Assembly: GCA_005789055.1 (NCBI GenBank) | Contig: SYAA01000071.1 | Span: forward strand, 1 to 11,786 | Length of the DNA: 11,786 nt | Origin: Actinomycetota bacterium | GTDB taxonomy: Bacteria > Actinomycetota > Actinomycetes > Mycobacteriales > Mycobacteriaceae | Reading direction: 5' to 3' | Shown here: positions 2 through 11,786 of the stretch, one piece after another | Layout of the letters: every line of letters starts with the position of its first letter | Position numbering within the stretch: position 1 is the first letter of the stretch | Program-made: the position numbers and the translations under genes | The notes under the pieces: model-generated | What the model saw: only the letters and a program-made list of their open reading frames with translations | Told to the model about the DNA's origin: nothing | Databases searched by the model: none

Positions 2-3000
2 GGCGACCCGATCGAAGCCCGCGCCCTCGGGGCGGTGTACGGCCGGGGACGGCAGCCCGACATGCCGCTGCTGGCCGGCGCGGTCAAGACCAATCTCGGC
101 CACCTGGAAGCAGCGGCGGGCATCGCCGGGCTGATCAAGGCCACCCTGGCGTTACAGCGGGGCACGATCCCGGCGAATCTGCACTTCGAGAAACCCAATG
201 CGCATATTCCGTTCGACGAACTCAGATTGAAGGTGGTCGACGAGGTGACCGCCTGGCCGGACACCGGACAACCGCGTCGGGCGGGCGTGTCGTCATTCGG
301 TTTCGGCGGAACGAATGCCCATATCATTCTTGAACAGGCACCTGAGTTGGCCGCGCTCGAAGAACCGGCCGTCCCGCCGGTCACCACACTGGTGGTCAGC
401 GGCAAGAGCGTTGAGCGATTGGCCGAGATGGCCACCACGTTGGCCGACTGGATGACCGGTGCCGGATCACAGATTCGGTTGGCCGACGTCGCGCACACGC
501 TCAATCACCACCGGACCCACCACGGAACCTTCGCCACGGTATGCGCGGCCAACCGGGATGAGGCGGTCGCCGGGTTGCGGGCGCTGGCAGCCGGGCAACC
601 TGCCACCGGTGTGGTCGGTCCCCATGCCGGACCGTGCGGTCCGGGAACGGTGTTTGTCTATTCCGGTCAGGGATCCCAGTGGGCGGGAATGGGCCGACAA
701 CTCCTTGCCGATGAACCCGTCTTCGCAGCCGCGGTCGCCGAGTTAGATCCGTCGTTTGTAGCAGAGGTCGGGTTTTCGCTGCACGACGTACTTGCTGGTG
801 GCCAAGAACTGACCGGCATTGATCAGATCCAGCCGGTGTTGGTCGGTATCCAGTTGGCGCTGACGGAGCTGTGGCGCTCGTACGGGGTGCAACCCGATGC
901 GGTGATCGGGCATTCGATGGGCGAAATCACCGCGGCGGTCGTAGCCGGGGCGCTGAAACCGGCCGAGGGATTCCGGGTGATCGCTAAGCGGTCGCAGCTG
1001 ATGGCTCGCCGCGCCGAAACGGGAGCGATAGCCCTGCTCGAGCTCGACGCGCCCGCCACTGAGGCATTGATCGCCGATTTTCCGGAGGTGACGGTCGCGG
1101 TGTTTGCATCACCGCGGCAGACAGTCGTTGCCGGACCGACCGAGGCCGTCGATGCCGTCGTGGCCCGGGCTGGCGCGCAGAACATCTTCGCCCGCAGGGT
1201 TAACGTGGATGTGGCGTCCCACCACGCGATGATGGACCCGATTCTGCCGGAACTGAAAGAAGCGCTGGCGGACCTGGTACCCGGCTTCCCAGTCATCCCG
1301 ATCATCTCCACCGTCGAGAATTCAGGTGCCACACCGGAATTCGACGCGGACCATTGGGTGGCTAACCTTCGCAACCCGGTCCGGTTCAGCGAAGCGATCG
1401 CCACGGCCGGTGCCACAAACGCCACGTTCATCGAAATCAGTCCGCACCCGCTGCTCACCAAGGCTATCTCGGACACCCTCGATGACCCGAAAACCGGCAA
1501 CAAGCATCACCACAGCCTTGGCACGCTGCAGCGTGACATCCACGACACCGTCGCGTTCCACGCTTCCCTCAATGCGACGCACACCGTGGGGGCGCCACTC
1601 GGTGAGCATCCGCCGGGGCCGCACCCCGCGATCCCGACCACCCCGTGGCGTCACACGCGGCACTGGATCGACATCACACCGGCGGTGCCGACCGCCGGCT
1701 TCGGTGTGGCCGGCAGGTCGCACGGCAGAAGGCCGGCCACCGAGGCCAGCCCCATCCCGCCGGATTGGCTCTACGAGCCGACCTGGCCGGTGCGCCCGTT
1801 GGCGGCCGCCGTCGGTGATGTCGGTTCCTGGCTCGTCATCGGCGACCCCGAATTGGGTTCCGAACTTGGTCGGGGCCTGGCGCACGGTACTGATCGGGAC
1901 ACGCTGCGTGCCGCCCTGGCCGACGTGGACAACGTGCTGTTCGCGCCGGAATCAGCGGGCTCCCTCATCGATGTCGCGTCCGCCTACGGCCTCTTCAACG
2001 AGGCGAGAGCACTGGTTGAAGACCTGGTTTCGATGCCGTCGGCGCCGCGGTTGCACATCCTCACGCGCAACGCCCAGCCTGTCGCAGAAGGGGATCGCGC
2101 TAACGCGACACATGCCGTGCTGTGGGGACTGGGCCGCACGCTTGCACTGGAGTATCCAGAGATCTGGGCCGGCGTCGTTGATGTCGACGATTCGATGCCG
2201 GCCGCGTTGACCGCTCGACTGGTGTTGGCAGAGGCGCAGGCAGGCGACGGCGAGGATCAGGTGGTGTACCGGGCGGGCGCTCGGCACGTGCCGCGGTTGG
2301 AACACTGTGCCGCGTGGTCGACGCCGACGGATGTGATCGGCCGCGATACCAGTCATCTGGTCATCGGAGCCACCGGCCACATCGGTCCGTATCTGATCCA
2401 GCAACTGGCCGATATGGGAGCCGGAACGGTCGTTGCGGTCTCACGGAATCCCGGCGACCGCCTCGACGAATTGGCCCGACGGTTGTCATCGACGGGGACG
2501 ACGCTGATCGCGGTGGCCGCCGACGCGACTGACCACGTCGCCATGGCGGCGTTGTTCGACCGGTTCGGTGCTGATCTCCCGGCACTCGAGGGCGTTTATC
2601 TTGCGGCCTTCGCCGGCGGACCGGTGGCGTTGTCCGGTATGACCGACGACGACGTCGCCACCATGTTCGGGCCCAAACTGGACGCACTCGGGGTCCTGCA
2701 CGCACTGTCGCTGAAGGCCGACCTTCGCCAGTTCGTCCTGTTCTCGTCGATCTCGGGTCTGCTCGGGTCACGCTGGCTCGCCCACTACACCGCGACAAGT
2801 GCCTTTCTCGACACCTTCGCCTATACTCGCCGCAACCTCGGGCTTCCGGCCACCACTGTGAACTGGGGGCTGTGGAAGTCCTTGGACGATCCGCAATCGG
2901 ATGCCAGCCAGGTGATCTCCGACTCGGGACTGGTGCCAATGGCCGATGAGGTGGCCATTCGTGCGCTGCCGATGCTGATTGGTTCTGACGCGCCTGTGCG

Positions 3001-3508
3001 GACCACCGTGGTGGATGCCGACTGGCCGCTGTTGTCCGCGGCGTATCGCACCCGCGGGGCGCTACGGATAATTGACGACGTGCTGGCCCTTGACGAAGCG
3101 TCGCTCTCGGCCCTGCCGGAGACCGAGTTGGCCGCAGCACTGCGCGAGTGTGCACCCGAACGGCGGCGCGAGCTGCTGGCCGACCAAATCATGACGTTGG
3201 CCTCAGACGTGATGGGACTGGCGCCCACGCAGGCTCTGGATCCGGCGGCGGGGTTCTTTCAGCTCGGAATGGACTCGCTGATGAGCGTCACACTGCAGCG
3301 CGGGCTAAGCGCAAGTCTTGGCATTCCGTTGCCCGCGGCGGTGATCTACGAGTATCCGACCATTTCATCACTGACCGAGGCACTCTGCGAGCGGATGGGT
3401 TACGCAGAAGCTGGAGAAGCCGCAACGACAGCTCGATCCGGTCTCGGTGCGCGAGCCCAGCTCCGCGCCCGGACCCGTGCGCAGTCGGGTAGACGGAAGG
3501 GACACTAG
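2..3508 (+). CDS. Type I polyketide synthase, PpsB/PpsD-like extension module, 5'-truncated by window edge (KS end-AT-KR-ACP)
   Basis: This is the last 1168 residues of a modular PKS; the frame is open to the left edge, so the start and the KS active-site Cys lie outside. Visible domains, numbered from the fragment start: KS C-terminus (1-115, GDPIE, then NLGH with His34); AT (about 215-510, FVYSGQGSQW, GHSMGE with Ser305, VASH ending at His407); KR (about 590-970, NADPH motif GATGHIG, FSSISG, Tyr929); ACP (about 1055-1130, LGMDSL with Ser1092). VASH is the methylmalonyl-type AT signature. AT runs into the KR structural subdomain with no room for a dehydratase or enoyl reductase. Full length should be near 1500 residues, close to M. 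tuberculosis PpsB (about 1540) and shorter than PpsD (about 1830, with DH). Its place directly before a PpsE-like gene corresponds to PpsD. The expected product is an alpha-methyl-beta-hydroxyacyl-ACP. The C-terminus is a basic tail. Family assignment is firm; the exact orthologue is not. Confidence 0.93.
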   Translation, partial: GDPIEARALGAVYGRGRQPDMPLLAGAVKTNLGHLEAAAGIAGLIKATLALQRGTIPANLHFEKPNAHIPFDELRLKVVDEVTAWPDTGQPRRAGVSSFGFGGTNAHIILEQAPELAALEEPAVPPVTTLVVSGKSVERLAEMATTLADWMTGAGSQIRLADVAHTLNHHRTHHGTFATVCAANRDEAVAGLRALAAGQPATGVVGPHAGPCGPGTVFVYSGQGSQWAGMGRQLLADEPVFAAAVAELDPSFVAEVGFSLHDVLAGGQELTGIDQIQPVLVGIQLALTELWRSYGVQPDAVIGHSMGEITAAVVAGALKPAEGFRVIAKRSQLMARRAETGAIALLELDAPATEALIADFPEVTVAVFASPRQTVVAGPTEAVDAVVARAGAQNIFARRVNVDVASHHAMMDPILPELKEALADLVPGFPVIPIISTVENSGATPEFDADHWVANLRNPVRFSEAIATAGATNATFIEISPHPLLTKAISDTLDDPKTGNKHHHSLGTLQRDIHDTVAFHASLNATHTVGAPLGEHPPGPHPAIPTTPWRHTRHWIDITPAVPTAGFGVAGRSHGRRPATEASPIPPDWLYEPTWPVRPLAAAVGDVGSWLVIGDPELGSELGRGLAHGTDRDTLRAALADVDNVLFAPESAGSLIDVASAYGLFNEARALVEDLVSMPSAPRLHILTRNAQPVAEGDRANATHAVLWGLGRTLALEYPEIWAGVVDVDDSMPAALTARLVLAEAQAGDGEDQVVYRAGARHVPRLEHCAAWSTPTDVIGRDTSHLVIGATGHIGPYLIQQLADMGAGTVVAVSRNPGDRLDELARRLSSTGTTLIAVAADATDHVAMAALFDRFGADLPALEGVYLAAFAGGPVALSGMTDDDVATMFGPKLDALGVLHALSLKADLRQFVLFSSISGLLGSRWLAHYTATSAFLDTFAYTRRNLGLPATTVNWGLWKSLDDPQSDASQVISDSGLVPMADEVAIRALPMLIGSDAPVRTTVVDADWPLLSAAYRTRGALRIIDDVLALDEASLSALPETELAAALRECAPERRRELLADQIMTLASDVMGLAPTQALDPAAGFFQLGMDSLMSVTLQRGLSASLGIPLPAAVIYEYPTISSLTEALCERMGYAEAGEAATTARSGLGARAQLRARTRAQSGRRKGH
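3495..3500 (+). promoter_or_regulatory. Ribosome binding site for the PpsE-like gene
   Basis: GGAAGG lies inside the last codons of the upstream PKS, 10 bases before a TTG start. It supports the rare TTG start, which places the KS motif NAIAVIGMAGRFPG about 16 residues from the N-terminus, as is usual for this family. The stop of the upstream gene is 2 bases before the start, so translational coupling is likely. Confidence 0.6.
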
Positions 3509-3510
3509 AG

Positions 3511-6500
3511 TTGACCATCGCCAACGATTACCCGAACACAAATGAGTTGCCTCCCAACGCGATAGCCGTCATCGGCATGGCCGGACGATTCCCCGGCGCG
3601 GAGTCAGTGACGAAATTCTGGGACAACCTGCGTGCGGGCGAGGAATCCGTTACGAGTCTGTCTGAGGAGATGCTGACCGCCGCCGGAGTCAGTACTACGA
3701 CGCTCGCCAATCCCGCATATGTCCGGCGTGCAGCCATGCTCAATGGGATCGACGAGTTCGACGCCGAGTACTTCGGAATTACCCCCTACACCGCCCGGAT
3801 GATGGATCCCCAGCAGCGCTTGTTCCTGCAGACCGCCTGGCATGCCCTGGAGGATTCTGGCTACGACCCCGCGACCTACGACGGTTCTATCGGAGTCTTC
3901 GCCAGTAGTACCGCCAGCGGCTACCTGATGGACAACCTGATGTCGCACCGCGACACCAAAAAGCTTGTCGGCGAGGGCATCACCGTCGAGATGTTCAACC
4001 TCGTCCTGCTCAACGACAAGGACTACTTGGCAACACGAGTGTCCCATGAGCTGAACCTGCGCGGGCCCAGTCTGTCGGTCCAGACGGCGTGCTCGTCGTC
4101 ACTGGTCGCAGTGCACCTCGCATGCCAGAGCCTGCTGTCCGGCGAATGCGACATGGCGCTCACCGGTGCTTCGGCAATAAGGATTCCGCACAAGGTCGGA
4201 TATACCTTTGAGCCGGGCGCGATGGTATCCCCGACCGGTCACTGCCGGCCATTTGACGTCAAGTCTGACGGCACTATTTTCGGCAGCGGAGTGGCTGCGC
4301 TGATCCTCAAGCCGATGCAGGCCGCACTCGACGATGGTGACCGCATTCATGCCGTCATCCGTGGCTCAGCGATCAACAACGACGGCGCGATGAAGATGAC
4401 CTACGCGGCCCCTGCAGTGGCCGGCCAGGCGGAAGTCATCGCCGAAGCGCAGGCCGTCGCCGCTGTCGACGCTTCGACCATCGGCTACGTCGAGACGCAT
4501 GGCACGGGCACGCCGTTGGGCGACCCGATCGAAATCGAAGCGCTGCGGCAGGCTTTTGACGCGGGCGAGGGTGAGCGGAACAGCCCGTGCGTGATCGGAT
4601 CGGTTAAGTCGAACATCGGTCACCTTGATGCCGCGTCCGGAGTCGTGGGTCTGGTCAAGACCATCCTCTGTCTGAAGAACAAGGCGATCCCGCCGACGGT
4701 GCACTACACGGCGCCGAACCCGGAGTTGCATCTGCAAAACACGCCGTTTGTGGTCGCCGACTATTATGTCGGATGGGAGTCGGACGCACCGCGACGGGCC
4801 GGGGTCAGCTCATTCGGTGTCGGCGGCACCAATGCACACGTCGTAGTCGAGGAGGCTCCGGCGACGTCCCCTGCGGGCAATACACCGAGCGGCCCTCAGG
4901 TGCTGCTGTTGTCCGCCCGCACCGCCGATTCGCTGCCGGAAGCCAAGGCGGCCCTTGCGGCCGCACTCGACACCGACGTCGACGTCGAGATTGCCGACGT
5001 GGCGTTCACGCTGGCGAACCGACGACTGCACGAGGTTCGCCTTGCCGCCGTCGTCGCAGATCGCGCCGACGCAGTCGCCGTGTTGGCCGCCGCCGAGCAC
5101 GACAACGTATCTATCGGCACCTGCCCGCCTGGCATTGCCCCTGGCGCACAGCGGATCGCCTTCATGTTCCCCGGCCAGGGTTCTCAGCACGTCGGCATGG
5201 CCCGCGGCCTCTACGACTCCGAACCGGTGTTCCGGGAGATCTTCGACCGATGCGCCGAAGGCTTCGCTGAGGAACTGGGCATAGACCTCAAGGTAGAGGT
5301 GTTCGAGGGGTCCTCGTTGGAGCCCACCGATCTGGCCCAGCCCGCCCTGTTCTCCGTGGAATATGCTCTGGCACAACTGATCATCTCCTACGGGGTATCC
5401 CCGACGGCACTGGCCGGACACAGCATCGGCGAACTCGTGGCGGCAACCGTGGCCGGAGTTTTCGACCTGGATTCGGCGATCAAGGCAGTTGCGACGCGGG
5501 CACGTCTGATGCACACCGCCCCGGCGGGTGCCATGGTGGCCGTCGCCTCGAGTCCCGACGACATCGCGGCCCTCCTGACCGCGGACATCGACCTCGCCGC
5601 CGTAAACGAATTCGGCAGCTGCGTGGTCGCCGGGCCCGACGAGGCGATTCGCGAATTCACCAACCGTTGCGCCGCCGAGGGAATCGTGGCCCGACGTGTC
5701 CGGACTTCCCACGGGTTCCATTCGCAGTCAATGGATTCGGTGCTCGCCCCGTTCGCGGAGTTCCTGTCCACTCTGACGTTGCGTGCGCCGCTAATCCCGA
5801 TGCTATCCAACGTCACCGGCACCTGGATGACCGACGAAGAGGCGACCGATCCGAATCGTTGGGCTCGGCACATTCGGTCCACCGTGCGGTTCGCCGACGA
5901 AGTCGCCACACTGCTCGGCGATGCCCACCGGGTGCTTGTCGAGGTGGGACCGGGCGGGAGCCTGACTGGAGCGGCCCTGCGGATGCCCGGGTGGTCGGAC
6001 ACCCACCGTGCGGTTCGCCTGATGCGCCACCCCGTACAGACTCGCGACGACCGGGACGCTTTCCTGCTCGCACTTGGGCAGCTGTGGTCCGCCGGAGTGG
6101 ACGTCGATTGGGAGAAGCTGTACGGCGACGACCCGCGCCGTGTCACCCTGCCCGGCTACGCCTTTGCCCGGCAACGCTATTGGATCGACCCGGATACGAC
6201 CGCCGTGCGCAAACCCGTCGAGTCGGGCTCCGACTCAACCGCCGATAATCAACCGGTAAACGGCCAGGATGGCGCGCAGGATGACGCCCGCGCGCAGATG
6301 CAGAGCACACTGGCGCGGATCTGGTCGCAATGCCTGGGTGTGGAATCGGTCGCGCCGGGCGACAACTTTTTCGAACTCGGTGGCGATTCGCTGGTTGCGA
6401 TCGGCGTCGCGATGACCGCGTCGCACGAAGGTGTTGAGCTCACTCCTCAGGATCTCTACGACAACGCAACTCTCGGTGCCCTGGCCGACACCCTGGTCGC

Positions 6501-7947
6501 CCGCTATGCCTTCGGCGGGTTGTCCAGCCAGGACGCCGGTAACCTCAATCCTCCTGTCCCGCCGAACATCCTGCGGTTCCTCGACAACGGCCTGTCGCAG
6601 CCCGGGCGTTGGCGGGTGCCGCTGGTGCTGCGCCTAGATTCTCGGGTGAGTGCGCAGGACGCCACCGCAGTCTTGACGGCGATCATCAATCACCATGATG
6701 CGTTGCGGATGCGGGTAGTCGATCGAGCAGGAATGTGGGAGCAGCAGATCGCCGATCCTTCGGAGTTCACCGATCTGACCGAGGTGGCCTTGCCCGCAGA
6801 AGCCGTACCCGGTGCACCGCAGGAGCGAGAAGCCCTGCACGCCATCGTCTCTGCGGCCGTAGCGCAGGACCTTAGCAGCGCGCCACTGACGGCCACCTAT
6901 GTCGCCGGTGCCGGGGCAGGACCGTGTTTCCTGGTGCTCACTGTGCACGGCATTGTCGACGACCCCATATCCCGAGAGGTGTTGGTGACCGATCTGCTCA
7001 CCGCTTTCGGGCAGCGGACGGCGGGCAATGACATCGCCCTAGAGCCGGCGACTACGAGCTGGCGGGACTGGTCGCAGCGCTGCGCGGCGCTCGCCGCCCA
7101 CCCCGCAGTGCTCGACCAGCGGGGCTACTGGATCGACAACGAGGCGACCGCTTCGGTGCGGCTGGCCGACGCGGGGGATTCGAGCCCGCCAGGCGCTGGC
7201 GATCTGGTCAGAGTGGCCACCGCCCTGACACCTGAGCAGACCTCGCAGGTCGACAATGCCCGCCGAATATTGCAAGCCTCGACCGAGGAGATCCTGCTGG
7301 CAGCACTGGCGCGCAGCCTGGCAGTCACTGTGGGTGACGGCGTGGCCAGCGTCGACCTCGTCGGCACCGGGCGGTCCGTGCTGCGGCCGGATGTCGACTT
7401 CCGCAGGACGATTGGCTGGTTCTCCACGATCTACCCGGTCAAGCTGCCGTGCATAGGCGACCAAGGCGCCAGCGCGACGCAACTCCTCGCGGAGGTGAGC
7501 CACGCCCTCAAGGCGGTGCCGCATCATGGGATCGGTTACGGACTGTTGCGGTACCTGCATGCACCGACGGCGGGGCTGCTGGGCGCCGCCGGCGCTGCGC
7601 AGATCTACCTCTCCTACCTCGGGATGATCCCCGAATGGCAGGAGAGCGACGCGCTCGTCCAGTTTGACACCGACAGCGAACTCACCGTCCGCGAAACGGT
7701 ACCGGGCTTGGGCCATCCGCTGGAGTTGCGGACCTACCGGTACGGCGGTGTCCTGCATGTGGATTGGTGGTATGACAAACGACGGGTGTCCGGCGACACC
7801 ATTGATGTTTTGGCGCAACAGCTTCCAGCAACGCTTGCCGCACTGATCGATGAAGCATTTTCCGGGGACGGAGCTGAAGCCGAGGCCGAGGACGAGGCTA
7901 TGGCCCTGGTGGATCTGTCCGCGGCCGTTTTCGACGATGATGAGTAG
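3511..7947 (+). CDS. ppsE: PpsE-like type I polyketide synthase, KS-AT-ACP with C-terminal condensation-like domain
   Basis: This 1478-residue protein matches PpsE of the phthiocerol pathway (about 1490 residues) in length, domain order and many stretches recalled from that family. Domains: KS (about 16-445, TACSSS with Cys194, HGTGT with His330, NIGH with His371); AT (about 550-850, FPGQGSQ, GHSIGE with Ser638, HGFHS with His737); ACP (about 930-1000, LGGDSL with Ser960); condensation-like domain (about 1015-1440, INHHDALR near the start and HGIVD with His1146 and Asp1150). No KR, DH or ER is present, so this terminal module should leave a beta-keto chain. In the known pathway that chain is released with help from the thioesterase TesA and decarboxylated to a ketone. 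The AT motif is malonyl-type, though PpsE is thought to accept methylmalonyl too. The last 32 residues are strongly acidic and include ALVDLS, also seen near the end of M. tuberculosis PpsE as I recall it. The start is TTG, 2 bases after the previous stop. Confidence 0.92.
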   Translation: MTIANDYPNTNELPPNAIAVIGMAGRFPGAESVTKFWDNLRAGEESVTSLSEEMLTAAGVSTTTLANPAYVRRAAMLNGIDEFDAEYFGITPYTARMMDPQQRLFLQTAWHALEDSGYDPATYDGSIGVFASSTASGYLMDNLMSHRDTKKLVGEGITVEMFNLVLLNDKDYLATRVSHELNLRGPSLSVQTACSSSLVAVHLACQSLLSGECDMALTGASAIRIPHKVGYTFEPGAMVSPTGHCRPFDVKSDGTIFGSGVAALILKPMQAALDDGDRIHAVIRGSAINNDGAMKMTYAAPAVAGQAEVIAEAQAVAAVDASTIGYVETHGTGTPLGDPIEIEALRQAFDAGEGERNSPCVIGSVKSNIGHLDAASGVVGLVKTILCLKNKAIPPTVHYTAPNPELHLQNTPFVVADYYVGWESDAPRRAGVSSFGVGGTNAHVVVEEAPATSPAGNTPSGPQVLLLSARTADSLPEAKAALAAALDTDVDVEIADVAFTLANRRLHEVRLAAVVADRADAVAVLAAAEHDNVSIGTCPPGIAPGAQRIAFMFPGQGSQHVGMARGLYDSEPVFREIFDRCAEGFAEELGIDLKVEVFEGSSLEPTDLAQPALFSVEYALAQLIISYGVSPTALAGHSIGELVAATVAGVFDLDSAIKAVATRARLMHTAPAGAMVAVASSPDDIAALLTADIDLAAVNEFGSCVVAGPDEAIREFTNRCAAEGIVARRVRTSHGFHSQSMDSVLAPFAEFLSTLTLRAPLIPMLSNVTGTWMTDEEATDPNRWARHIRSTVRFADEVATLLGDAHRVLVEVGPGGSLTGAALRMPGWSDTHRAVRLMRHPVQTRDDRDAFLLALGQLWSAGVDVDWEKLYGDDPRRVTLPGYAFARQRYWIDPDTTAVRKPVESGSDSTADNQPVNGQDGAQDDARAQMQSTLARIWSQCLGVESVAPGDNFFELGGDSLVAIGVAMTASHEGVELTPQDLYDNATLGALADTLVARYAFGGLSSQDAGNLNPPVPPNILRFLDNGLSQPGRWRVPLVLRLDSRVSAQDATAVLTAIINHHDALRMRVVDRAGMWEQQIADPSEFTDLTEVALPAEAVPGAPQEREALHAIVSAAVAQDLSSAPLTATYVAGAGAGPCFLVLTVHGIVDDPISREVLVTDLLTAFGQRTAGNDIALEPATTSWRDWSQRCAALAAHPAVLDQRGYWIDNEATASVRLADAGDSSPPGAGDLVRVATALTPEQTSQVDNARRILQASTEEILLAALARSLAVTVGDGVASVDLVGTGRSVLRPDVDFRRTIGWFSTIYPVKLPCIGDQGASATQLLAEVSHALKAVPHHGIGYGLLRYLHAPTAGLLGAAGAAQIYLSYLGMIPEWQESDALVQFDTDSELTVRETVPGLGHPLELRTYRYGGVLHVDWWYDKRRVSGDTIDVLAQQLPATLAALIDEAFSGDGAEAEAEDEAMALVDLSAAVFDDDE

Positions 7948-8004
7948 CTGTATTTCTCTGTCGAGGTGTGGTTCAGTGCGATCGCCGATCAAGGGATATC
8001 GAGA

Positions 8005-8011
8005 GGGAAGG
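8005..8011 (+). promoter_or_regulatory. Ribosome binding site for the PapA5-like gene
   Basis: GGGAAGG lies 7 bases before the GTG at 8019. It is a good Shine-Dalgarno match and supports this start, which gives an N-terminus (MFGSTQIRYLSPSEEF) in register with the PapA5 family. The 71-base gap from 7948 to 8018 otherwise holds only short palindromes (GCGATCGC, GATATC, GTTAAC) and no convincing promoter or terminator. Confidence 0.65.
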
Positions 8012-8018
8012 TTAACGG

Positions 8019-9266
8019 GTGTTCGGCTCAACGCAGATCCGCTATCTGTCGCCAAGCGAGGAGTTCTACGCTAGAGCGGAGAACTTCATCGGTCTCACCC
8101 TGACTTTGCGTGGTCCGGTGGACGTGGCCGCGATGACGGAGGCATTCGACACACTGCTGCGGGTCCACCCCGCCCATGCCGGTCATCTCGAGCGCGGCGC
8201 CGACGGCAGGCACCAGATCATGGTCGACGATTACGAGCATGAAGGAATCTGGCTGGAGAAGTTTGGCGACACCCCGGGTGCGCGGCTGCCCGACCAGTCC
8301 CAGGCACTCCTCAATGTGAAAATCGGGCTCGGCGACACCCGGTCTACCGTGACCCTCTACACGCACCATGCACTGGGCGATGGCCACCACCAGTTCGCCT
8401 TGCTGGAGCAGTTGTTCGGTTGGTACACCAACATCGCAACCGGTACCGCGCTCGGACCGGTCAAGCCCGAGCCGATTCCGGAATCGCTGGAGGCGGTGCT
8501 TTCCTCTCGTGGTATCGGCAAGCTCCAGCGCTTTGGTCTGGAGCGGTTCCTTCCGGCGATCTTCGCTTACGATCTACCACCGTCTAAACGCAACGCGGGA
8601 CGCGTTGGCCCCCAATCGGTTCGCGTACCGTCCGCGGCGTGTCGACTTTCCCGGCAGGAGACCCAGCATCTGGTCGGCATCTGTGCGGCTCAACGGATCA
8701 GCGTCAACTCTCTCGTTGCCGCTGCAATTCTGATGGCCGAGTGGACCATTCGGGAGACTCCGCACCTTCCAATCCCCTACATCTACCCGGTCGATTTGCG
8801 CTTCTTCCTGACTCCGCCGGTAGGCGCCACCGAGGCGACCAACCCGGTGGGAATGGCGATGTATCTGGCCGAGATCCGCTCCAACACCGACCTTCTGGAC
8901 CTAGCCCGCAACATCGTCGAGGTGTTCCGCGCCGACCTCGCCGACGGCGTAATCCAGCAGTCATTCCTACACTTCAGTGCCGAGTACCAGGGCAACCCGC
9001 CCGGCCTGCCCGATGTCGTGATGGCAACTGACGTCGGCGATCTACCGCCCTTACCGACCCCGCCCGGCCTGGTCGTCGAGCAGTACGAACTGGAAGTGCT
9101 TTTCGCCTCGACGTCGGCGGGTGTCGACATGTATTCAACCGGGATGTACGACGGCCAGCTGTTGGTGAGCTACCACAGCCACGGCCCACAACTCGAGCGC
9201 TACGTCGCCGAGATCCACAAACTCCTTGCAGCGGTGCAGGCAAAGGACGACTGGGCGACGGACTAG
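8019..9266 (+). CDS. papA5: PapA5-like acyltransferase (phthiocerol dimycocerosyl transferase family)
   Basis: The protein has 415 residues; M. tuberculosis PapA5 has 422. PapA5 moves mycocerosic acid from the Mas synthase onto the two hydroxyls of phthiocerol, at the cytoplasmic side of the membrane. The catalytic motif HHALGDG (His117, Asp121) is the HHxxxDG motif of the condensation/acyltransferase superfamily. Long stretches resemble PapA5: AAAILMAEW, the IPYIYPVDLRF region and ADLADGVIQQS. Arg304 in FRADLADG lines up, in my by-eye alignment, with the PapA5 arginine (Arg312) reported to be needed for contact with Mas. There is no signal peptide or membrane segment. It follows the PpsE-like gene by 71 bases in the same direction and faces a Mas-like gene, as in the DIM locus, which supports the same acceptor/donor roles. 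The substrates may differ from classical phthiocerol because the PKS upstream differs. The start is GTG. Confidence 0.92.
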   Translation: MFGSTQIRYLSPSEEFYARAENFIGLTLTLRGPVDVAAMTEAFDTLLRVHPAHAGHLERGADGRHQIMVDDYEHEGIWLEKFGDTPGARLPDQSQALLNVKIGLGDTRSTVTLYTHHALGDGHHQFALLEQLFGWYTNIATGTALGPVKPEPIPESLEAVLSSRGIGKLQRFGLERFLPAIFAYDLPPSKRNAGRVGPQSVRVPSAACRLSRQETQHLVGICAAQRISVNSLVAAAILMAEWTIRETPHLPIPYIYPVDLRFFLTPPVGATEATNPVGMAMYLAEIRSNTDLLDLARNIVEVFRADLADGVIQQSFLHFSAEYQGNPPGLPDVVMATDVGDLPPLPTPPGLVVEQYELEVLFASTSAGVDMYSTGMYDGQLLVSYHSHGPQLERYVAEIHKLLAAVQAKDDWATD

Positions 9267-9321
9267 CGGTCTGGTGGGCGACTACGATTGTGTTCCTGTC
9301 TGATCGACGTGGGGGTGGCGA

Positions 9322-10107
9322 ATGGTGACCCTGATCACCGGGGCCTCGACCGGGATCGGCGCTGAATTCGCTCGGCAGTTCGCCGCGCGGGGTCACGACC
9401 TAGTCGTAGTCGCCCGCAGTGCGGATCGGCTCGAGGAACTTGCCGCGCAGCTGCAGGCGGCACACGGGGTAGACGTCAGCGTGATTGTGATGGACCTTTC
9501 GAAGCCCACCGCGGCGGCGGAACTGTGGCAGCGAACCACTGAGTTGGGGCTTGAGGTCGACATGCTGATCAACAATGCCGGCTTTGGAACCCACGGCGAC
9601 GTCGCTGATGCCGAGCCGCAGCGCCTAGAGGACGCAATCGAGCTCAACTGCAGGATGCTGGTCGGCGCAACCGCCCGCTACCTACCGCAGATGCGGGCCA
9701 GGGGCCGAGGAACGATCATCAACGTCGCATCGACCGCAGCGTTCCAACCATTGCCGCAGATGGCGGTCTACGGTGCGTCGAAGGCTTTCGTGTTGTCCTT
9801 CACCGAGGCGCTCTGGGCAGAGGAACGCAAGCATGGCATTCGTATCGTGGCGGTGTGCCCCGGACTCACCGATACCCCGTTCTTCGAACTGGCCGGGGAA
9901 GCGGCAGCCAACGCCGTCTCGGGCACCGCGGTACGCACATTCATCCGGACCCCCCAGCAGGTCGTCGCCCACACCATCCGTGCGCTTTCTGGACACAAAC
10001 CCAGCTTCGTCGACGGTTTCGTTAATGCAGTGGTCTTTCGTGGACTCAACCGGGTGTTTCCAAGGCGCCTAGTGATCGCCGTGTCGGGGCGGTTGATGGG
10101 GAGGTGA
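9322..10107 (+). CDS. Short-chain dehydrogenase/reductase, DltE-like
   Basis: This 261-residue classical SDR is a cytoplasmic NAD(P)(H)-dependent oxidoreductase. The cofactor motif GASTGIG (residues 7-13) begins almost at the N-terminus, so the ATG start is sound. NNAG is at 84-87, the catalytic Ser is Ser137 (NVASTAA), and the YGASK motif gives Tyr150 and Lys154. CPGLTDTPFF follows, as in DltE-type SDRs. All catalytic residues are present, so it should be active. It starts 55 bases after the PapA5-like gene on the same strand and is probably co-transcribed; the GGGGGTGG stretch before the ATG is a mediocre ribosome site. As I know it, the DIM locus of M. tuberculosis has no SDR here; its phthiodiolone ketoreductase (Rv2951c) belongs to the unrelated F420-dependent family. 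A role in reducing the ketone left by the PpsE-like module is attractive but inferred. The substrate cannot be read from sequence. Confidence 0.9.
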   Translation: MVTLITGASTGIGAEFARQFAARGHDLVVVARSADRLEELAAQLQAAHGVDVSVIVMDLSKPTAAAELWQRTTELGLEVDMLINNAGFGTHGDVADAEPQRLEDAIELNCRMLVGATARYLPQMRARGRGTIINVASTAAFQPLPQMAVYGASKAFVLSFTEALWAEERKHGIRIVAVCPGLTDTPFFELAGEAAANAVSGTAVRTFIRTPQQVVAHTIRALSGHKPSFVDGFVNAVVFRGLNRVFPRRLVIAVSGRLMGR

Positions 10108-10109
10108 GG

Positions 10110-11786
10110 TCAGGACTCCGACGAGAGAGCCTCGCTGAGGTGTGCCGCAAGGGTCCGCGCGGTGTTGAAGGTGGCAATCATCTTGGGCGTCAGACGAATG
10201 CCGGTTTGGGTTTCGATTTGCGTGCGTAACTCCAGGATGCCCAGGGAATCCAGACCATGATCGGCGAATGAGCGATCGGGATCGATTGCGCGGCGCAGGA
10301 TCAGACCGGCTTGCTCGGTGACAACGCGGCGTAACCGGTTGGGCCATTCTTCCGGATCCAGACCGGCGAGTTCGGCTAGCACGGCCGGGACATCGGCACC
10401 ATGGGCGCCGCCCCCGTCGCGGAATGCCTCAGCAAATGGGCTTCGTACCGCGAGCGCGGTCAACGGCGGCATCCCCGTCAGCGGGAGGTACCCGGTGTAG
10501 CTGCGGTGGTGACGGAGAAGTTCCCGGAATGCGTAGGCGCCGTCCTTGGGGTTGATCATCGTCACGTTTCCGCGTTGCGCCACACCTGCGCCAGCACCGA
10601 TATCCGCCCACGCACCCCAGGCGATCGCGCTGGCCAGCACGCCCTGGCTGCACTGCCAGGACGTGAAGGCGTCCAGCCAACTGTTCGCAGCCGCATATGC
10701 GCCCTGTCCCGGCGATCCCAGCAGGACCGCAGCTGAGGAGAAGCTGCAGAACCAGTCCAGCACAGCGTCTGTCGTCGCTTCGTGCAGGTACCACGCACCG
10801 TAAACCTTTGGCGCCCAGTCCCGTTCGATCAAATCCGACGTGATGTTCTCCAGCGTGGCATCGTCGACAACAGCGGCCGCATGCAGAACTCCGCGCAGCG
10901 GAAGCCCAGTCGCGGTAGCGACCCTGACCAGGCGCGCTGCGGTTTCCGGATCGGCGATGTTTCCACACTCGACCTGGATGTCGGCCCCGCCAGCCTTCAG
11001 TCTGTCGATCGTCTTCTGCGCTTGGGGATTGGGCTGCGACCGCGAGGTCAACACAATCCGTCCGCACCCCCCGTTGGCCATCACCGCGGCGAGGAAAAGG
11101 CCGAGTCCGCCAACACCCCCGGTGACGATGTACGAGCCATCGCTGCGGAAGACCTTCGCCTGCTGAGGCGGCACCACCACCGACGTCTCACCGGCTCGCG
11201 GCACCGACAGCACGAGCTTCCCGGTGTGTTCGGCGGCGCTGATGGTCCGAACCGCAGTGGCGGCCTGGGCCAACGGATACACCGTGTGTTCGGGTACCGG
11301 CAGCACGCCGTCGCCAACCAGTTCGTAGATCTTGCGCAGCAGCACTCCGATCCGTTTCGGGTCGCTGATGGTCATCAACGCCAGATCTGCGTAGAAGAAC
11401 GACAGGTTGCGGCGGAACGGGTAAAGGTCGACGCGGGTGTGCTCGTAGACATCGCGCTTGCCGATCTCAACGAAGCGTCCGCCGAAGGCCAGTAACTCAA
11501 GTCCTGCGCGCTGGGCGGGACCGATCAACGAGTTGAGCACAATGTCGACGCCGTACCCGTCGGTGTCTCGACGGATCTCTTCGGCGAAATCCGTTGAGCG
11601 GGAATCGTAGACGTAACCGATACCCATCTCCCGGAGCAATTGCCGCCGGGCCGGGCTGCCGGCTGTGGCGAAGACTTCCGCTCCGGCTTGGCGTGCGATC
11701 GCTATCGCTGCCTGACCGACACCTCCGGTGGCCGAGTGAATCAGGACGCGGTCGCCGGCCTGAATCCGGGCCAGTTCATGCAGTCC
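10110..11786 (-). CDS. Mas-family iterative type I polyketide synthase, C-terminal part (ER-KR-ACP), truncated by window edge
   Basis: The last 558 residues of a reducing PKS are visible; the frame stays open to the right edge, so KS, AT, DH and the start of ER lie outside. Fragment numbering starts at 11786. ER: NADPH motif HSATGGVGQ (17-25), then DIVLNS and [18 protein letters not shown] (coded near 11100-11127), FCSFSSA, then Tyr364 and Asn368 in [11 protein letters not shown], a complete catalytic set. ACP: HGLDSL with Ser514. The segment resembles Mas and Pks5, which use methylmalonyl-CoA and full reduction to make multimethyl-branched fatty acids; family members are about 2100 residues long. 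Mas charges PapA5, and M. tuberculosis mas lies in the same convergent position after papA5, so this PKS probably supplies the acyl donor. By eye some stretches look at least as close to Pks5 as to Mas, so I give no symbol. Its stop lies 2 bases from the SDR stop. Confidence 0.93.

What the first reader, a model, noticed from the sequence alone, without database searches (positions are those of the whole stretch)
2..11786. Rearranged DIM-like locus: PpsE - PapA5 - SDR - convergent Mas, with no drrABC
The order PpsE-like, PapA5-like, convergent Mas-like copies the core of the mycobacterial phthiocerol dimycocerosate locus. In M. tuberculosis, and in other DIM producers as I know them, drrABC (ABC exporter) lies between ppsE and papA5. 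Here that gap is 71 bases, and an SDR has been added before the Mas-like gene. This points to a related but distinct two-component ester lipid, with export encoded elsewhere or done by a different transporter such as an MmpL protein.
Basis: partly seen in the sequence, partly recalled or inferred. Interest (0 to 1): 0.72.

Follow-up and report, generated by a model that had tools for sequence, protein, structure and literature searches.

The report
Two-module DIM-like locus without exporter genes
A freshwater mycobacterium carries a cut-down relative of the gene set that builds the waxy lipid DIM of the tubercle bacillus, with only two chain-building modules for the diol, a patched-together fatty-acid synthase, and none of the ABC exporter genes that its relatives keep at this place.

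Summary
The gene order is real. The window is a whole contig of a 55%-complete mycobacterial MAG; an exact 121-base overlap joins it to contig C299, giving pks13 - accD4 - thioesterase - FAAL - PpsA-like (ACP-KS-AT-KR-ACP) - PpsE-like (KS-AT-ACP-C) - papA5 - SDR - convergent Mas-like. Relative G127 (97% complete) has FAAL to Mas on one contig. The diol synthase thus has two modules.

It is not a rearranged M. tuberculosis locus. It belongs to a family shared with Mycolicibacterium tusciae, M. xanthum and other MAGs, in which drrABC lies between ppsE and papA5 and a WS/DGAT gene after papA5. Trees nest the window clade inside it, so drrABC and WS/DGAT were lost; DrrC is not found in G127. The genes compared are under purifying selection.

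Beyond the finding: the clade's convergent Mas is a hybrid (FAAL plus ACP-KS-AT of Pps type on Mas-type DH-ER-KR-ACP), a build also seen beside papA5 in an M. triplex-like genome.

Best reading: a short beta-diol diester, exported without DrrABC or not exported; the chemistry is inferred. New variant of a known kind.

The parts
2..3508 (+). PpsA-like PKS, 3' part: KS(C-part)-AT-KR-ACP; the 5' part (ACP-KS) is on contig C299
   Evidence: Pfam; exact 121-base overlap with C299; whole gene on one contig in G127
3511..7947 (+). PpsE-like PKS: KS-AT-ACP-Condensation
   Evidence: Pfam; 97% to G127, 74-82% to ten drr-bearing relatives' genomes (G354, three-module, 72%)
7948..8018 (.). 71-base ppsE-papA5 gap where relatives carry drrABC; the stretch just before papA5 resembles that between drrC and papA5 in G267
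8019..9266 (+). PapA5-like acyltransferase with HHALGDG motif
9322..10107 (+). SDR, candidate reductase of the PpsE ketone
   Evidence: synteny in relatives; role inferred
10110..11786 (-). 3' part (ER part-KR-ACP) of a convergent hybrid Mas; the front (KS-AT-DH) is on contig C322
   Evidence: 95% to G127 hybrid and to P0002; link to C322 inferred from G127 and P0002

Best explanation
A reduced DIM-type lipid locus. A FAAL loads a long fatty acid on the N-terminal ACP of the PpsA-like enzyme; PpsA adds one unit and its KR leaves a beta-hydroxyl; PpsE adds a last unit and leaves a ketone; a TesA-like thioesterase helps release (with decarboxylation, by analogy with DIM); the SDR reduces the ketone, giving a short beta-diol. 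The convergent hybrid Mas, loaded through its own FAAL and N-terminal ACP, makes reduced, probably methyl-branched fatty acids, and PapA5 puts them on the diol. The ancestor had drrABC and a WS/DGAT gene at this place; this freshwater clade lost both while the synthetic genes stayed under selection, so the ester is exported without DrrABC (for example by an MmpL) or stays inside. Shown: gene content, domain order, trees, losses, hybrid structure, purifying selection. Inferred: every chemical step, the SDR's role, export.
For: Two modules: window plus C299; FAAL-PpsA-PpsE-PapA5-SDR-hybrid on one contig of G127, and the drr-bearing version in G146 and G313 (1-2 contigs each) and M. xanthum. drr matches in 14 of 16 named PapA5 loci, none in L006 (G127's own contig) and L021; relatives' DrrA and DrrB over NCBIfam cut-offs. 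DrrC absent in G127 and G000, present in 10 of 10 others. Window clade 100/100 and nested in PapA5 (26 rows) and PpsE (21 rows) trees. dN/dS G000-G127 0.06-0.18 over seven gene pieces. Hybrid: KS-AT 68% to own PpsA, 42-47% to Mas; ER-KR-ACP windows 74-88% to M. tusciae Mas; full-length form P0002; FAAL directly upstream in G127 C295. Thioesterase match at the locus in 6 of 6 genomes searched. drrA, drrB and drrC are each needed for PDIM export in BCG (PMC11539658, abstract and passages).
Against: No lipid has been seen. The PpsA-like AT reads VASH, as MAS AT 7agp does, where solved M. tuberculosis PpsA and PpsC ATs read VAPH, so its extender unit is uncertain. The PpsA KR has S where many KRs have N (recalled), as in the other PpsA rows printed. 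PpsE's condensation domain has a degenerate motif, VHGIVDD. The convergent Mas is missing after the SDR in 3 of 11 testable relatives, so the acid partner may not always come from it; I lowered confidence from 0.6 to 0.55 for this. G127 has other Mas-type genes that could supply the acid. The SDR may have another substrate. The window-C322 link is inferred.
Confidence: 0.55

Rival explanations
1. The lipid is made but no longer exported: after the loss of drrABC the diester stays in the cytoplasm or inner membrane as a store or membrane lipid.
For: Each drr gene is needed for PDIM export in BCG (PMC11539658); drrABC missing from the locus and DrrC from G127; genes still selected.
Against: MmpL genes remain; M. 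abscessus GDND is reported as an MmpL substrate (PMC6463170 passage); G069-type papA5 loci also lack drr.
Confidence: 0.2
2. The pathway was repurposed: with the Pps-type front the convergent enzyme makes another acid, or works as a further diol module, and PapA5 makes a different ester.
For: Hybrid front of Pps type; loss of WS/DGAT on the same branch; a separate true Mas in G127.
Against: PapA5 is the slowest-changing gene compared (dN/dS 0.06); the same hybrid stands beside papA5 with drrABC in G164; VASH motif kept.
Confidence: 0.17
3. Artefact: drrABC dropped and the hybrid created by metagenome assembly or binning.
For: G000, G127 and L021 are MAGs; G000 is 55% complete in 450 contigs.
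Against: Short ppsE-papA5 gap in three records (71, 45 and 45 bases); hybrid in G000 and G127 at 95% and in an isolate-like genome, G164.
Confidence: 0.04

Closest known systems
M. tuberculosis DIM (PDIM) locus, fadD26-ppsA-E-drrABC-papA5-mas
   Same: FAAL, PpsA with loading ACP, PpsE with C-terminal condensation domain, PapA5, convergent Mas, thioesterase gene nearby (M. tuberculosis order partly recalled)
   Different: Two Pps modules, not five; SDR between papA5 and mas; no drrABC; hybrid Mas front
Two-module pps-drrABC-papA5 loci of Mycolicibacterium tusciae (L018), M. xanthum (L016) and MAGs
   Same: Same orthologues in the same order; PpsA, PpsE, PapA5 and SDR 68-83% identical in the drr-bearing named loci
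   Different: They keep drrABC and WS/DGAT; where mas is present it has a Mas-type KS-AT; 3 of 11 testable loci have no mas after the SDR
   Same: FAAL plus hybrid Mas convergent with papA5
   Different: More Pps modules, drrABC present, PapA5 50% identical
G069-type papA5 locus
   Same: ppsE directly before papA5, no drr match
   Different: More modules; PapA5 47-48% identical; separate branch in both trees
Glycosyl diacylated nonadecyl diol (GDND) of M. abscessus
   Same: A diacylated long-chain diol tied to an MmpL (PMC10194924, PMC6463170 passages)
   Different: Its genes were not compared here; a lead only

Membership tests
DIM (PDIM) biosynthetic locus | FAAL next to PpsA with N-terminal ACP | tested here: met
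DIM (PDIM) biosynthetic locus | Five Pps modules, PpsA to PpsE | tested here: not met
   Two modules; one contig in G127
DIM (PDIM) biosynthetic locus | PapA5 with HHxxxDG | tested here: met
   under the NCBIfam equivalog cut-off
DIM (PDIM) biosynthetic locus | drrABC exporter | tested here: not met
DIM (PDIM) biosynthetic locus | Linked MmpL7 | tested here: inconclusive
   No MmpL match on the locus contigs; others in the genome not typed
DIM (PDIM) biosynthetic locus | Phthiocerol diester as product | not testable with these tools
   Needs mass spectrometry
Mas (mycocerosic acid synthase) | Mas-type DH-ER-KR-ACP | tested here: met
Mas (mycocerosic acid synthase) | Mas-type KS-AT without N-terminal ACP | tested here: not met
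   Pps-type ACP-KS-AT
Mas (mycocerosic acid synthase) | Iterative use of methylmalonyl-CoA | tested here: inconclusive
   VASH motif as in MAS AT 7agp; activity not testable
Two-module pps-papA5 family (as defined here from relatives) | ACP-KS-AT-KR-ACP directly before KS-AT-ACP-C, then papA5 and SDR | tested here: met

The most novel reading that the evidence does not exclude
A natural mycobacterial lineage makes and surface-exports a two-module beta-diol diester of DIM type without DrrABC, with a self-loading hybrid Mas; this would show that DrrABC is not intrinsic to moving such esters and that Mas front ends move as a FAAL-ACP-KS-AT cassette in evolution.
Probability: 0.3. Interest if true: 0.68.

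Novelty: new variant of a known kind. Interest (0 to 1): 0.5.

Why it matters
In BCG, loss of drrA, drrB or drrC ends PDIM export (PMC11539658), and PDIM is described as unusual among MmpL substrates in needing DrrABC as well (PMC6463170). A clade that dropped these genes but keeps the synthetic genes under selection, beside sister species that kept them, is a natural comparison for that question. The two-module family offers a minimal diol synthase with a predicted short product. The hybrid Mas points to an exchange site between AT and DH that nature has used more than once, of use to PKS engineering.

Tried and rejected
Rejected: a rearranged five-module DIM locus; drrABC moved elsewhere (no DrrC match in G127; the 3% missing from that genome is not excluded); misassembly of the ppsE-papA5 join (three records); the hybrid as an assembly error. 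My first idea that hybrid Mas is peculiar to this clade was wrong: of 134 sequences sorted by script, 32 fell under 'Pps front, Mas back'. Four of them (P0021, P0027, P0041, P0086, 1830-1840 residues) lack a back long enough for the tree; 28 stayed in the back tree, and I left those four out of the hybrid label in the front tree. That the SDR goes with two-module loci is open: three-module loci L063 and L064 have no match to it there, but other SDR matches lie near papA5 in L069 and L066.

Led nowhere: paper searches on GDND, pps/papA5/drr clusters, rapid growers, M. tusciae polyketides, PpsC/MAS AT selectivity, module extenders, hybrid or N-terminal-ACP Mas, and drrABC lack listed no report of this variant that I recognised from titles and abstracts; they cover open-licence PMC papers only. 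A search of 347 relatives at E<=1e-190 found no member of the clade beyond G000 and G127. PF03176 counts single out no MmpL.

Papers seen: PMC11539658 outline with abstract and passages; PMC1238737, PMC3089613, PMC6463170, PMC10194924, PMC7261415 passages only; all others as listings.
Full report
What is in the window. Five reading frames fill it: a PKS module cut at its 5' end (2-3508+), a second PKS (3511-7947+), a PapA5-like acyltransferase (8019-9266+), an SDR (9322-10107+) and the 3' part of a convergent PKS (10110-11786-). Their domains are KS-AT-KR-ACP, KS-AT-ACP-Condensation, PapA_C, SDR, and ER-KR-ACP. NCBIfam puts gene 3 nearest 'phthiocerol/phthiodiolone dimycocerosyl transferase' (506 bits, cut-off 716) and gene 5 nearest the Pks2 family. 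In the PDB, gene 3 matches only PapA5, 1q9j.

The missing upstream half. The window is all of contig C440 of a MAG of 2.2 Mb in 450 contigs, 55% complete. The last 121 bases of contig C299 equal the first 121 of the window. C299 carries the end of pks13, accD4, a thioesterase gene (6249-6980), a FAAL (7388-9154) and the ACP-KS-AT start of the PpsA-like gene. The diol side is therefore FAAL, ACP-KS-AT-KR-ACP and KS-AT-ACP-C, with no PpsB, PpsC or PpsD between. G127 (97% complete, 3.1 Mb) shows FAAL, both modules, papA5, SDR and the convergent gene on one 19-kb contig.

The family. A PapA5 scan of genome contigs gave 16 loci. With M. tusciae genes added to the queries, 14 of the 16 have drr matches between ppsE and papA5 and a WS/DGAT match after papA5; the SDR follows in 12 of the 14, the other two contigs ending first. 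A convergent Mas follows in 8 of the 11 that have 5 kb or more beyond the SDR; L008, L010 and L017 have none there. The two loci without drr are L006, which is G127's own contig, and L021, a fragment that ends inside papA5. NCBIfam has DrrA and DrrB of M. tusciae over their cut-offs; DrrC is just under the drrC cut-off (162.5 against 165.65) and over that of the DrrB family. G111 and G354 have a further fully reducing module between ppsA and ppsE.

Loss, not rearrangement. PapA5 (26 rows) and PpsE (21 rows) trees put the window clade (G000, G127 and, for PpsE, L021) at 100/100 inside the drr-bearing family, sister to drr-bearing G267 (100/97 and 99/97). DrrC of M. tusciae has no match at E<=1e-3 in G000 or G127 but has one in 10 of 10 other genomes searched. 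The bases just before papA5 resemble those between drrC and papA5 in G267, so the deletion looks clean (by eye). dN/dS between G000 and G127 is 0.16 (PpsA part), 0.11 (PpsE), 0.06 (PapA5), 0.10 (SDR), 0.15 (Mas C-part), 0.13 (hybrid KS-AT) and 0.18 (hybrid DH). The genes look used.

Drr-less papA5 loci elsewhere. Of 396 genus genomes, 153 have a PapA5 match at E<=1e-80. I parsed 150 matches from that listing and the DrrC listing; both lists were cut. Of the 150, 117 have a DrrC match within 400 bases upstream and 33 do not; one of the 33, G015, lies near a contig start. I read one of them, G069: its ppsE match ends 29 bases from its papA5 match, with no drr match, in a locus with more modules. 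It is on another branch of both trees, so that is a separate state.

The hybrid Mas. In G127 the front of the convergent enzyme (its first 600 residues on the contig) is 42-80% identical to PpsA in 100-residue windows against 31-57% to M. tusciae Mas, while its ER-KR-ACP part is 74-88% to Mas. Contig C322 of the window's genome (KS-AT-DH) is 95% identical to it; its KS-AT is 68% to the genome's own PpsA and 42-47% to Mas rows. In a KS-AT tree of 29 rows the two hybrid fronts sit with the Pps enzymes, next to the PpsA group, at 100/99. A protein search (7,990 best candidates scored, 120 listed) gave the full-length form P0002, 2176 residues: an N-terminal ACP (by eye, from likeness to PpsA), KS-AT of Pps type, then DH-ER-KR-ACP of Mas type. 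Contig C295 of G127 carries its first 458 residues (97.6%) with a FAAL directly upstream. I saw no FAAL match near mas in the drr-bearing relatives read; G146 was read for 7 kb, the others for about 1.5 kb.

Spread of the hybrid. The same build occurs in many proteins, among them some that sources name MAS, as in M. lentiflavum (P0063). In G164, whose contig matches P0104 (named M. triplex) at 99.95%, FAAL and hybrid stand convergent to papA5 with drrABC present. In a tree of backs (44 rows) hybrids are mixed with true Mas, and starred branches force at least three changes. Fronts lie in nearly one group, with three non-hybrid Pps rows among or beside them (quick method, 67 rows, no bootstrap). 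I read this as a FAAL-ACP-KS-AT front moved onto resident Mas backs more than once. Metagenome chimeras could inflate the count. G127 also has other Mas-type genes: C162, after two methylmalonyl-CoA mutase-type genes, and C160.

How it probably works. With one KR-only module and PpsE the released chain would carry one hydroxyl and one ketone, so a reductase is needed for a diol that can be acylated twice; the SDR is the candidate. In M. tuberculosis two KR modules supply both hydroxyls (recalled). Extenders are open: the PpsA-like AT and the hybrid AT read VASH, as solved MAS AT 7agp does; solved PpsA and PpsC ATs (7akc, 7ahb) read VAPH; PpsE reads HGFH. A methyl-branched acid is the first guess. 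Export is the open point. In BCG drrA, drrB and drrC are each required for PDIM export, and the authors think it likely that MmpL7, which lacks the usual proton-relay residues, is a scaffold with DrrABC (PMC11539658). PpsE binds MmpL7 in M. tuberculosis (PMC1238737 passages). MmpL-domain matches exist in the clade (19 in G127, 17 in G000; 18-28 in six relatives) but none is tied to this locus.

Verdict. 'Distinct ester lipid without drrABC' stands as the best reading; 'rearranged' and 'added SDR' do not. New here are a two-module family of DIM-like loci, a clade in it without the exporter genes, and that clade's hybrid Mas. The paper searches listed no description of these that I recognised; they do not show that none is in print.

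Noticed in passing
L012: A record titled Bifidobacterium breve (MAG MiH-14oct19-164) carries a mycobacterial pps-drr-papA5-mas locus; the label or bin looks wrong.
   Followed up: no
L005 (G000:C391) 264-14442: A gene that looks like argS (by eye), a FAAL, a full Mas-type PKS and an NRPS-like gene side by side in the window's genome; perhaps a separate lipid or lipopeptide locus.
   Followed up: partly
L105 (G127:C162): Two methylmalonyl-CoA mutase-type genes and a MeaB-type gene (by eye) a few genes before a further Mas-type gene, a possible source of its extender.
   Followed up: no
L098-L099 (G069): ppsE followed at once by papA5, no drr match, in a longer multi-module locus; 31 of 150 parsed PapA5 matches outside the window clade lack an adjacent DrrC match.
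   Followed up: partly
L008, L010, L017: Two-module loci of the family with no Mas match after the SDR, though 5 kb or more of contig follows.
   Followed up: partly
L060 (G194) about 2306-2444: The ppsA gene is split between two reading frames: a frameshift or an assembly error.
   Followed up: no
P0009: A hybrid-type KS-AT front joined to a PpsC-type back, a further sign of exchange at the AT-DH border.
   Followed up: no
L068 (G146) 9346-13021: Three luciferase-like monooxygenase genes in a row upstream of mas in a drr-bearing relative.
   Followed up: no
L004, L053, L055, L056, L058, L117: In the window's genome and in MAGs G317, G391 and G025 (and by accD4 alone in G267) the locus stands after pks13-accD4; G127 has pks13-accD4-thioesterase on contig C498. 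In G146, G123, G313 and G067 the 3.5-4.3 kb read before the FAAL shows neither.
   Followed up: no
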